DNA of 64,000 bases from NCBI RefSeq assembly GCF_900636915.1, contig NZ_LR134327.1:2273154-2337153 (forward strand). The letters run 5' to 3'. Below, in pieces: positions 13,420-15,827 of the stretch. How positions within the stretch are numbered: the stretch's first letter is position 1; the number at the start of each line of letters is the position of its first letter. The notes under the pieces are model-generated. The model saw only the letters and a program-made list of their open reading frames with translations, was not told the origin of the DNA and did not search any database. The stretch is from Aggregatibacter aphrophilus ATCC 33389 (GTDB lineage Bacteria; Pseudomonadota; Gammaproteobacteria; Enterobacterales; Pasteurellaceae). A program made the translations under genes and the position numbers.

Positions 13420-13517
13420 TTTCTTTCTGCGCAAATATACTGCTGAATCCATATTGCTTGTGCCATACAAACCGATATAATTCGTCGCAGATTTATCACA
13501 AAAAGGAAACCTTAATC

Positions 13518-14395
13518 ACCGAACCACACCGCTACGGCACCGTGGTTTCAGAAGTGGATTTAACGTTTGATATCAACGATAAAAAAGAAGTGAAATTGCT
13601 GAAAAAAGAAGCCAAAACCGTACCGGTTAAAGATCTGGCTTCCGATGAAAAAATCGTGGAAATCTACAAACCATATCACGAGAAATTACGTGAATTAAAT
13701 AACGTAGTTATCGGCCAAGCAGAGAATGAAATGGTGCCACAAGGCAAAAAACATGGCGTAGCCATTGCCTTTGCCAAAGACACCGGTCTGTCTTCTTTCA
13801 TCTACGATGTTGAGCGTCATTACAGCAATGCCGACGTTGTGTCTTTCTCTTTTGACCACCAAAACGCCCGCATGGATAAAGGTGACATCAAGAAAAAAGA
13901 CATCATCTTTAACTATCGCTATGCTGGCGGTGATGTGACCGTTTATGAAATGACGGGCAAACAGCTCAAACAATACATGGAATGGTCAGCGGATTATTTC
14001 GATACCGTTCAAGCGGGCGACACCGATTATCGCTATAACGCAGAGCGCAAAAAATCCAAATATGTCACCTACGCTCTATTCGGCGGCGTGAAATACAAAA
14101 TTGATTTACGCAAACCAAGCGGACAAAAAATCGTGGATTTAACCTTAGCCAATGGCAAACCGATCACCGATGACATGAAATTGAAAGTGGGTATGAACTC
14201 CTACCGCTTCAACCAACTCCACGGTAAAGGCGGCATCTTTGAAGGACAAGACATCCCTGTGGTGTGGGAATCCAAAGTGGTGATGGGACGCGAAAAGGCA
14301 TCATCCAAAACATGATGATCAACTACATCACCAACGTAAAAAAGCAAAATCCAAGGTCTTTCTCACAACAATTGGGAAATTATCGGCTTGGAATA
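13518..14395 (+). pseudogene. cpdB: decayed 2',3'-cyclic-nucleotide 2'-phosphodiesterase/3'-nucleotidase (CpdB-like) remnant
   Basis: The readable part is the C-terminal nucleotide-binding domain of a CpdB/UshA-type periplasmic enzyme: GKKHGVAIAFAKDTGLSSFIYD, the substrate-stacking region FNYRYAGGDVTVYEMTGKQLKQYMEW, and FGGVKYKIDLRKPSGQKIVDL. The signal peptide and the whole N-terminal metallophosphatase domain are absent. The homology begins abruptly just after an AAAAGGAAACC ribosome-site-like string near 13505, which suggests a deletion from the start region into the gene. Near 14295 the frame shifts (RKGIIQNMMINYITNVKK continues in another frame) and shifts again before the natural end NNWEIIGLE and TAA at 14393. 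Not a functional enzyme as it stands. Confidence 0.85.
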
Positions 14396-14447: not shown

Positions 14448-14542
14448 TTATATGTGAAAAACGTCGCTGAAAACAACCGCACTTTTGTATTAAATATTCC
14501 GTAATTTATTGGAATACAACACCAAACTTGAGTGTTGATATA

Positions 14543-14620
14543 TAGCGCTGGTGCGCGTCTCCCGCGACGCGTACCAAATCAATACAGTAAAAGAAAAGCA
14601 CGCGTCAGGAGACGCGCGCT
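14543..14620. repeat. GC-rich imperfect inverted repeat element
   Basis: The left arm TAGCGCTGGTGCGCGTCTCC plus CGCGACGCG is mirrored by the right arm CGCGTCAGGAGACGCGCGCT about 25 bases later. CpG-rich arms in an AT-rich stretch look like a small palindromic repeat or miniature element rather than a terminator. Copy number elsewhere cannot be judged from this window. Confidence 0.55.
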
Positions 14621-14640
14621 ATCATGGGGAAAATGGTAGA

Positions 14641-15144
14641 CTACAGTAAAGCTCCGGTAGCTGAGCCTAAAATAGAAACAACGAGAGGGTGAGATAGAAA
14701 TTGCTTGAGTAAAGATTTTACGTTTTCTTTTTCTGCTTCAGAAGCTGTAGAGTTCTCTATTTTCTGAATTAACTCATCAAACGTATTAGTAATGTTTTGG
14801 GCGTTATAGTCTCCTATTTGAACATTTTGTGAACCATGAATGTTAATATTCTGTATATTTTTTCCATTGGTCGTGATGGAGGAGTTTGGGTGAATTTTAT
14901 GTGGTAATGAGGAGGGATACAGCCTAGACTTTTAGAATAACAATCTACCTTTGTAACATAGTAATATTCATCATTTTCATTTGGTAATTTACGAATAATG
15001 ATATCGCCTTCTGCAATATTTGCTTGTAGATCAGTGACAATAATAGCATCTCGAGTAAAAGAAGCTTCATATGGTCCCTTAAGCGAACCATCTTTTTTTC
15101 TGAACGTTAAAGCTTTCTTTTATTTTATTTAATATAGACACCAT
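14641..15144 (-). pseudogene. frameshifted gene with N-terminal beta domain and C-terminal RHIM-like amyloid motif
   Basis: The ATG at 15144 has a strong AAGGAGG site. Frame 1 gives MVSILNKIKESFNVQKK and then a stop. The continuation is in a second frame from an A7 run near 15101: KKDGSLKGPYEASFTRDAII, ANIAEGDIIIRKLPNENDEY, GCIPPHYHIKF. It returns to frame 1 near 14868 with NIQNINIHGSQNVQIGDYNA then QNITNTFDELI, and ends SHPLVVSILGSATGALL with TAG at 14643. The extra and the missing base cancel, so the intact protein would be about 167 residues. VQIGDYN matches the core V/I-Q-V/I-G-x-x-N of RHIM amyloid motifs; the position nine residue (Gln) is not the usual hydrophobic. The final segment is a hydrophobic helix. 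It may be a decayed gene or carry two sequencing errors. Confidence 0.75.
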
Positions 15145-15194: not shown

Positions 15195-15827
15195 TTATCT
15201 TGTAGCAACAAGATTAATAATTTCCTCGTCTGTTCTTTCTTCATCAGGGTTATCACTAAAGAAAAAACTTAAATTTGGGTCATATCTATACCTTTGGTAT
15301 AGCTCAGGTCTTAGCATTTCAGCTTTATTACTATTTTTTATAGTACGAGATTTTGGGGTACCATTCGCTCTTTTTCCATTTCTTTTAACATCAAAGCAGT
15401 AGATAGCATTAGGGTTATTGCCCTCTGCTCTTCGCCCTATAAGCTCTCGCTCTAATAGTGGCTTATTAATCACTTTTTGCATAGGAATAACTCTAGCAAA
15501 ACATTCAGAAAAATTTATAAAGATTTCTCGAAATCTATTTCCATCAAGTCGATTTATATCAAAGAAATCAAAAAACTCTATTGCTGAATTGAAGTGAACT
15601 TCATAAAAATCCGCATATGCCCTTATACTATGATTGGCATCATCTTGATTGATAAATTCTATTTTTGCTTGAGCATAGTTACTCGGTTTTCTTTCTTTTT
15701 GAGTATAAAGAGTAAGAATTACTATAGTTTGCTTACCATTATATTCAAAAGGAAAAGAATCTATAATCCATCCTAACCGATTCATATCGTTCAGTAATAA
15801 CGGTAAATTTTGGAATCTAATAGGCAT
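15195..15827 (-). CDS. unknown protein, DUF6037-like; partner of the RHIM-motif gene
   Basis: A 210-residue soluble protein without signal peptide or membrane segment. The C-terminal half has a patterned stretch RRAEGNNPNAIYCFDVKRNG then SRTIKNSNKAEMLRPELY and LSFFFSDNPDEE, which recalls DUF6037 proteins from memory only; I cannot assign an activity. The ATG at 15827 has AAGGA 7 bases upstream. It lies 50 bases upstream of the RHIM-motif gene in the same direction, so the two probably form an operon. Both are more AT-rich than the flanking purL gene, which suggests acquisition. Its C-terminal acidic DEERTDEEIINL tail is distinctive. Confidence 0.7.
   Translation of the reverse strand: MPIRFQNLPLLLNDMNRLGWIIDSFPFEYNGKQTIVILTLYTQKERKPSNYAQAKIEFINQDDANHSIRAYADFYEVHFNSAIEFFDFFDINRLDGNRFREIFINFSECFARVIPMQKVINKPLLERELIGRRAEGNNPNAIYCFDVKRNGKRANGTPKSRTIKNSNKAEMLRPELYQRYRYDPNLSFFFSDNPDEERTDEEIINLVATR

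What the first reader, a model, noticed from the sequence alone, without database searches (positions are those of the whole stretch)
14641..15144. RHIM-like amyloid motif in a small, frameshifted gene
Seen: the C-terminal half reads HGSQNVQIGDYNAQNI, with V-Q-I-G-x-x-N matching the RHIM core. It follows a beta-rich domain (DGSLKGPYEASF...GDIIIRKLPNENDEYYYV) and precedes a hydrophobic helix (HPLVVSILGSATGALL). Known: RHIM and related amyloid motifs drive signalling assemblies in animal necroptosis, fungal cell death and bacterial amyloid signalling, usually linking a sensor to a cell-death effector. Inference: the gene belonged to a membrane-acting or adaptor part of a defence system. Gln at RHIM position nine is a departure from the mammalian pattern.
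Basis: partly seen in the sequence, partly recalled or inferred. Interest (0 to 1): 0.78.

Follow-up and report, generated by a model that had tools for sequence, protein, structure and literature searches.

The report
Broken phage-type RHIM-like amyloid gene
A small broken gene carries, in its intact relatives in bacterial viruses and bacteria, a short motif that matches the amyloid motif of human cell-death kinases, which suggests that phages may carry one-gene amyloid signalling devices, probably for fighting rival phages.

The parts
14641..15144 (-). RHIM-like gene, reading frame broken twice (product would be about 167 aa)
   Evidence: near-identical intact protein P0018
14870..15094 (-). 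N-terminal beta-barrel domain (second frame); in relatives it resembles phage head-tail stoppers and is also fused to a CAP12-type TIR
   Evidence: Piece 14817-15119 matches phrog_16834, E 6.1e-15; models of relatives; hhalign of the family with the TIR family, probability 98.3, E 1.6e-14
14791..14847 (-). RHIM-like stretch INIHGSQNVQIGDYNAQNI
   Evidence: family mini-profile E 1.4e-14
14797..14823 (-). RHIM core VQIGDYNAQ
   Evidence: Most conserved 9-mer of the family
14692..14790 (-). helical stretch after the motif
   Evidence: Helices 112-131 and 136-150 in the model of the relative P0001
14644..14691 (-). hydrophobic glycine-containing tail HPLVVSILGSATGALL
   Evidence: G-x-x-x-[G/A/S] in the last 22 residues of 71 of 76 members scored
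15195..15827 (-). DUF6037 gene, intact neighbour, not a fixed partner
   Evidence: PF19503 E 3.4e-59; beside purL without the RHIM gene in L054 and L055
14750..15900 (.). AT-rich island (RHIM gene plus DUF6037) at a variable site downstream of purL
   Evidence: GC about 0.31-0.34 against 0.41 on one side and 0.5 on the other; other AT-rich content at the same place in 6 same-genus genomes

Best explanation
The window holds a decayed or mis-sequenced copy of a mobile, often phage-borne, one-gene amyloid device. The N-terminal stopper-like barrel acts as the sensor. The RHIM-like motif lies in a disordered linker and, when molecules are brought together, templates into a cross-beta assembly. That assembly clusters the helices and glycine-containing hydrophobic tail, which act on the inner membrane and stop or kill the infected cell. 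Carried by a prophage or island, this would be a superinfection-exclusion or abortive-infection gene. SHOWN: gene, motif, conservation, domain plan, phage cargo position of relatives, purifying selection, reuse of the motif and of the barrel in other proteins. INFERRED: sensing, amyloid formation, membrane action, anti-phage role.
For: Core motif is the lowest-entropy 9-mer of 162 windows in a 49-sequence alignment. A motif profile made from bacteria only puts RIPK1, RIPK3 and 12kl_B in the top nine places among 177,635 PDB sequences, best E 3.6e-4 with all 41 distinct rows of A2 and 1.7e-4 with 20 chosen rows; reversed rows give two SH3 chains at 0.47-0.48. 12kl_B is deposited as a ribonucleotide reductase large subunit-like protein; that this is a viral RHIM decoy is recalled. 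Linker 93-110 is mostly below pLDDT 50 as a monomer. Lone gene on the opposite strand between DUF1133/Q-like gene and holin (similar in phage ENT39118), or near a repressor gene of a Mu-like prophage (my reading). dN/dS 0.034-0.096 in the three unsaturated pairs of six. Same barrel on a CAP12-type TIR protein. Direct neighbours SIR2-pAgo (L044) and PDC-M71 (L040). Same motif with other N-termini in P0047 and L046. A second, C-terminal RHIM-like motif in the adjacent gene of L037.
Against: No fibril, toxicity or phage assay exists. In 11 of 12 host genomes searched with the motif profile there is no second RHIM-like gene of this type, so no signalling partner is visible. The tail is short, weakly hydrophobic (mean best 16-residue Kyte-Doolittle 1.79) and its best 16-mer contains a charge in 14 of 76 members. 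A PADLOC-matched neighbour was found in 2 of 11 non-duplicate genome loci; in seven of the others one or two genes were scanned without a hit, in L038 and L047 none was scanned. The gene itself matches no PADLOC model at E<=0.05. The window copy is not readable as one frame.
Confidence: 0.45

Rival explanations
1. Phage RHIM decoy: the phage gene uses its RHIM-like motif to poison RHIM/BASS-type defence assemblies of the host, as herpesvirus RHIM proteins do with RIPK1/RIPK3.
For: Often phage-borne; usually no second gene with this motif in the genome; a virion-like fold joined to a RHIM recalls the RHIM in the varicella-zoster capsid triplex protein ORF20 (PMC7375649, start of abstract in search listing).
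Against: 11 of 12 host genomes carry no other RHIM protein of this type to poison (more distant BASS types were not searched); the gene also sits directly beside SIR2-pAgo and PDC-M71; the conserved tail suggests more than a decoy.
Confidence: 0.17
2. The motif is an oligomerisation strand or beta-helix turn in a stalk linking barrel and helices, with no amyloid role; its likeness to RHIM is convergent.
For: Three LpxD chains (left-handed beta-helix, recalled) appear at E 0.31 in the same profile search; beta-strand plus coiled helices is a common stalk plan (recalled); Pfam RHIM scores of the window piece and of P0001 are below the curated cut-off.
Against: RHIM chains rank far above LpxD (3.6e-4 against 0.31); the reversed control finds no RHIM; invariant Q-x-G-x-x-N and occasional M/L at position nine copy the mammalian pattern; the monomer model is disordered there.
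Confidence: 0.22
3. Adaptor: the RHIM-like motif recruits a separate effector (SIR2-pAgo, kinase-TPR, NTPase, or a second RHIM protein) and the protein itself does not act on the membrane.
For: Adjacent systems in L040, L044 and L046 and the second motif-bearing gene in L037.
Against: 408 neighbouring ORFs of 30 loci hold only one other core motif, in L037; in the lambdoid prophages examined the gene stands alone on its strand; the tail is conserved.
Confidence: 0.16

Closest known systems
RHIM of RIPK1/RIPK3, ZBP1, TRIF and herpesvirus decoys
   Same: (I/V)-Q-(I/V)-G-x-x-N core; bacterial profiles rank RIPK1/RIPK3/12kl_B first in the PDB; 7 of 79 members fit the full pattern with M/L at position nine
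   Different: Bacterial, often phage-borne, fused to a stopper-like barrel and a hydrophobic tail; Gln at position nine in most; amyloid not shown
BASS3 bacterial amyloid signalling motif with Bell effectors and NLRs (PMC7889193 and PMC8086366, passages)
   Same: RHIM-like motif in bacteria, proposed membrane-acting partner region, likely death or defence output
   Different: No NLR bearing the motif among the neighbours examined, motif central in most members, no Bell domain named by Pfam, present in phages; BASS is described there from NLR/effector gene pairs, mainly in filamentous bacteria
CAP12/Pycsar-type TIR proteins (PF10137; PADLOC PDC-S35)
   Same: Shares the N-terminal barrel
   Different: TIR effector instead of RHIM-like motif and tail
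Phage head-tail stoppers (necks of Chi, lambda, SPP1; chain names FII and gp16 recalled)
   Different: No shared sequence family found; in the annotated cases not among virion genes; extra motif and tail
phrog_16834 and phrog_5789
   Same: Phage protein families that match it
   Different: Function listed as unknown

Membership tests
RHIM (PF12721) | (I/V)-Q-(I/V)-G-x-x-N core | tested here: met
   Present in the window; Q, G, N in 79 of 79 distinct members, some of them gathered with patterns that contain the motif
RHIM (PF12721) | Score above the curated cut-off | tested here: inconclusive
   Window piece 15.9 bits against 20; P0042 and P0050 carry PF12721 as a precomputed domain
RHIM (PF12721) | Hydrophobic residue at position nine | tested here: not met
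   Q in the window and in 71 of 79; M or L in 8 of 79. So the window gene is called RHIM-like, not RHIM
RHIM (PF12721) | Functional amyloid | not testable with these tools
   Needs fibril assays
BASS/Bell-NLR amyloid signalosome | Adjacent NLR sharing the motif | tested here: not met
   408 neighbouring ORFs of 30 loci hold one other core motif, in a 126-aa ORF of L037, too short for an NLR; the family mini-profile over 10,996 open frames of all loci and the window finds nothing else outside the family and P0047. L046 has a weak nSTAND3-like ATPase without the motif
BASS/Bell-NLR amyloid signalosome | Bell domain | tested here: inconclusive
   No Bell model was matched in Pfam; whether Pfam holds one was not checked
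Phage head-tail stopper | Stopper fold | tested here: inconclusive
Known PADLOC defence system | Match of the gene itself | tested here: not met
   No match at E<=0.05; PDC-M14B at 0.062 for the C-terminal piece
Phage cargo (moron) gene | Lone gene on the opposite strand within a phage gene block | tested here: met
   For relatives, not for the window copy: annotated records L006, L063, L064

The most novel reading that the evidence does not exclude
Phages carry RHIM-type amyloid signalling in one-gene form: a captured head-tail-stopper domain docks on the connector or neck of an incoming rival phage, the ring geometry brings several RHIM motifs together, they nucleate an amyloid, and the clustered tails breach the membrane. 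This would be a phage-borne counterpart of the necrosome, independent of NLRs, and a possible mobile source of RHIM-type motifs in cellular immunity.
Probability: 0.22. Interest if true: 0.9.

Novelty: new variant of a known kind. Interest (0 to 1): 0.62.

Why it matters
A 2021 review asks whether bacteria have signalling amyloids outside NLR pathways, and notes that bacterial RHIM annotations could be false positives or real (PMC7889193, passages). This family is a concrete candidate: the motif is the most conserved 9-mer of the protein, its profile ranks RIPK1/RIPK3 chains above all else in the PDB, and relatives sit in prophages of E. coli, where they can be tested directly. If it works as proposed it ties phage conflict, amyloid signalling and animal necroptosis together and gives a minimal one-gene system.

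Tried and rejected
DUF6037 as fixed partner: rejected; it lies beside purL without the RHIM gene in L054 and L055, and beside ORFs that look like type I restriction specificity subunits in L053, L057 and L059 (my reading, not scanned). Partner genes with the motif in host genomes: 1 of 12 genomes has one, L037. Other RHIM architectures in the class by Pfam RHIM: 2 of 369 genomes at E<=0.02; this search missed the window's own gene (E 0.023) and the true relative in G412; of its two hits L061 was read and lies antisense to a longer frame, L062 was not read. Motif profile in the phylum: 3 of 398 genomes; own and G412 are family members, the third (L092) is an open frame antisense to another and I take it as a false positive. 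Around purL in 6 same-genus genomes: nucleotidase, DUF6037 and the RHIM gene were not found within 1.5 kb. Nucleotide-cyclase idea for L030: no Pfam or PADLOC match. Foldseek alone gave no match at E<=1e-3. PilZ and chymotrypsin-type half-barrels rank below the neck proteins in both models, so a c-di-GMP role was set aside, not excluded. Whole-family profile against the PDB: 7 chains at E<=1, a NEK1 kinase first at 0.14, RIPK1 chains at 0.37-0.87, so only the motif-only profile is significant. Papers: eight searches listed no paper that I recognised as describing this family; the library lacks most subscription papers, and the primary BASS paper is not held. Passages were seen of PMC7889193, PMC12881547, PMC12261475 and PMC8086366; no paper was read whole.

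Bias and dropped rows: loci were fetched with patterns that include the motif. The entropy ranking used A2: the query, 45 rows of a whole-protein search and 3 of a motif-region search. Neighbour ORFs were taken from 30 of the 38 loci (near-duplicates left out). Tail statistics leave out members with fewer than 45 residues after the motif. Selection: 6 pairs, 3 saturated and left out. A5 was hand-picked (20 rows); A6, all 41 distinct rows of A2, is the check.

Full report
What is there. The finding lies on the minus strand, 15144 to 14641. The frame is broken twice, at runs of T on the plus strand. The three pieces read MVSILNKIKESFNVQKK, a beta-rich stretch, and a C-terminal stretch with VQIGDYNAQ and the tail HPLVVSILGSATGALL. 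A near-identical intact protein exists: P0018 agrees at 71 of 73 residues with the C-terminal and 81 of 87 with the N-terminal piece; P0020 at 71 of 73 and 65 of 87. The gene and the next one, DUF6037 (15195-15827, PF19503 E 3.4e-59), form an AT-rich island between purL and a piece of a 5'-nucleotidase gene (C-terminal domain, PF02872 E 1.4e-21). In six same-genus genomes the place downstream of purL holds other AT-rich DNA. In two genomes of another genus of the family DUF6037 sits there without the RHIM gene, in L054 with an AbiD-type gene beyond it (E 4.3e-68). DUF6037 occurs in 7 of 140 genomes of the family and the C-terminal RHIM-like piece in 2 of 140, the own genome counted in both, so they are not a fixed pair.

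The family. An intact 170-aa relative (P0001 from L003; the identical protein is in L010 and in L036, named Rodentibacter sp. Ppn85) found 45 homologs. P0003 (Aggregatibacter actinomycetemcomitans) is named RIP homotypic interaction motif-containing protein by NCBI; P0004 (Actinobacillus equuli) bears a UniRef name that begins the same way. phrog_16834 (4.1e-35) and phrog_5789 (3.4e-6) match it, both of unknown function. In 49 aligned sequences the core 108-116 is the lowest-entropy 9-mer of 162 windows, and the best window that does not overlap it is HPLVVSILG at the start of the tail. Among 79 distinct members, positions two, four and seven are Q, G and N in 79 of 79; position nine is Q in 71, M in 6, L in 2; 7 of 79 satisfy the full mammalian-like pattern (some members were gathered with motif patterns). 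So Gln at nine is the family norm, and some relatives have the hydrophobic residue.

Is it really RHIM-like? Pfam RHIM matches 20 of 24 members at E<=1, best 8.5e-6, but the window piece and P0001 stay under the curated cut-off. A profile of the whole family against the PDB listed 7 chains at E<=1: NEK1 first at 0.14, five RIPK1 RHIM chains at 0.37-0.87, and one other at 0.95. A profile of the 26 motif columns alone is sharper. With all 41 distinct rows of A2 there are 13 hits at E<=1: places one to nine and thirteen are RIPK1, RIPK3 or 12kl_B, best 3.6e-4, and places ten to twelve are LpxD chains at 0.31. With 20 chosen rows all 10 hits are RIPK1, RIPK3 or 12kl_B, best 1.7e-4 (1.6e-4 with one mistyped residue). 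The same rows reversed give two unrelated SH3 chains at 0.47-0.48. In the window's genome this gene is the only Pfam RHIM match at E<=10, at E 0.023; 7 of 14 control genomes also give a match at that loose limit, none over the cut-off.

Where intact copies live. 26 loci came from the viral collection and 12 from genomes; most of the 45 homologs lie on contigs whose surroundings I did not see. In two E. coli prophages the gene is a lone hypothetical protein on the opposite strand between holin and DUF1133 genes (DUF1133 of L012 shows Phage_antitermQ similarity, E 2e-9). In Cronobacter phage ENT39118 it lies likewise next to the antitermination gene, with two further genes between it and the lysis genes. 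10 of 5426 E. coli genomes carry a relative of the L017 gene. In L003/L010 and L005/L011 it sits near a repressor gene of a Mu-like prophage, among genes of its own strand (my reading of the ORFs). dN/dS is 0.096, 0.040 and 0.034 in the three of six pairs that were not saturated. Elsewhere: in L044 it starts 37 bases after a SIR2-pAgo pair (PADLOC 6.8e-214 and 1.7e-205), in L040 it follows PDC-M71A and B (1.5e-68, 6.3e-91), in L046 a RHIM-like protein with another N-terminus precedes an ATPase weakly like nSTAND3 (E 0.0047, below cut-off). These are 3 of 11 non-duplicate genome loci; of the rest only some neighbours were scanned, without a PADLOC hit.

Mix and match. The barrel is shared with CAP12-type TIR proteins (P0048: hhalign probability 98.3, E 1.6e-14; PF10137 1.3e-35; PDC-S35 2.8e-60) and with proteins P0077/P0078 in which an Asn-rich stretch stands where the RHIM would be (tail of P0077 similar to PDC-M14B, 1.1e-5). 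The motif with helices and tail occurs on other N-termini (P0047, L046). In L037 the next gene encodes a small protein that ends in a second RHIM-like motif (E 3.7e-4 among 10,996 open frames; 1.6e-7 in its genome). Exchange of TIR for RHIM-plus-tail behind one barrel suggests, by inference, that the barrel senses and the rest executes.

How it most likely works. Sensor barrel, RHIM-like nucleator, membrane-acting tail in one protein, carried by prophages and islands against other phages. Confidence 0.45 for the whole chain; about 0.65 that the motif is a true RHIM-type amyloid motif. Rivals: phage decoy, ordinary stalk, adaptor.

Relation to print. RHIM-like BASS3 motifs in bacteria are known from NLR/effector gene pairs, and the 2021 review speaks of cross-seeding between mammalian RHIM prions and BASS3 bacterial amyloids (PMC7889193, passages; PMC8086366, passages). 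Eight searches listed no paper that I recognised as describing a phage-borne RHIM family; most subscription papers are not held. Hence: new variant of a known kind.

Noticed in passing
window 14500-14640: Dispersed element; the own genome gives 17 matches to this stretch, itself included.
   Followed up: partly
window 13458-14315: Piece of a 5'-nucleotidase with the C-terminal domain but without an N-terminal part in the same frame; looks like a decaying gene.
   Followed up: partly
downstream of purL, left of window 15885: Variable site: other AT-rich content in six same-genus genomes; DUF6037 in two genomes of another genus, with an AbiD-type gene in one.
   Followed up: partly
L037 5556-5936: Second small gene with a C-terminal RHIM-like motif directly downstream of a family member.
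   Followed up: partly
L008 5001-6101: CAP12-type TIR protein with the same N-terminal barrel on a conjugative plasmid, followed by a DUF4238 gene.
   Followed up: partly
L044 1659-5495: SIR2 plus short pAgo followed at once by the RHIM-like gene, perhaps one operon.
   Followed up: partly
P0077, P0078, L050 1363-1956: Same barrel with an Asn-rich stretch instead of the RHIM-like motif, perhaps another assembly motif.
   Followed up: no
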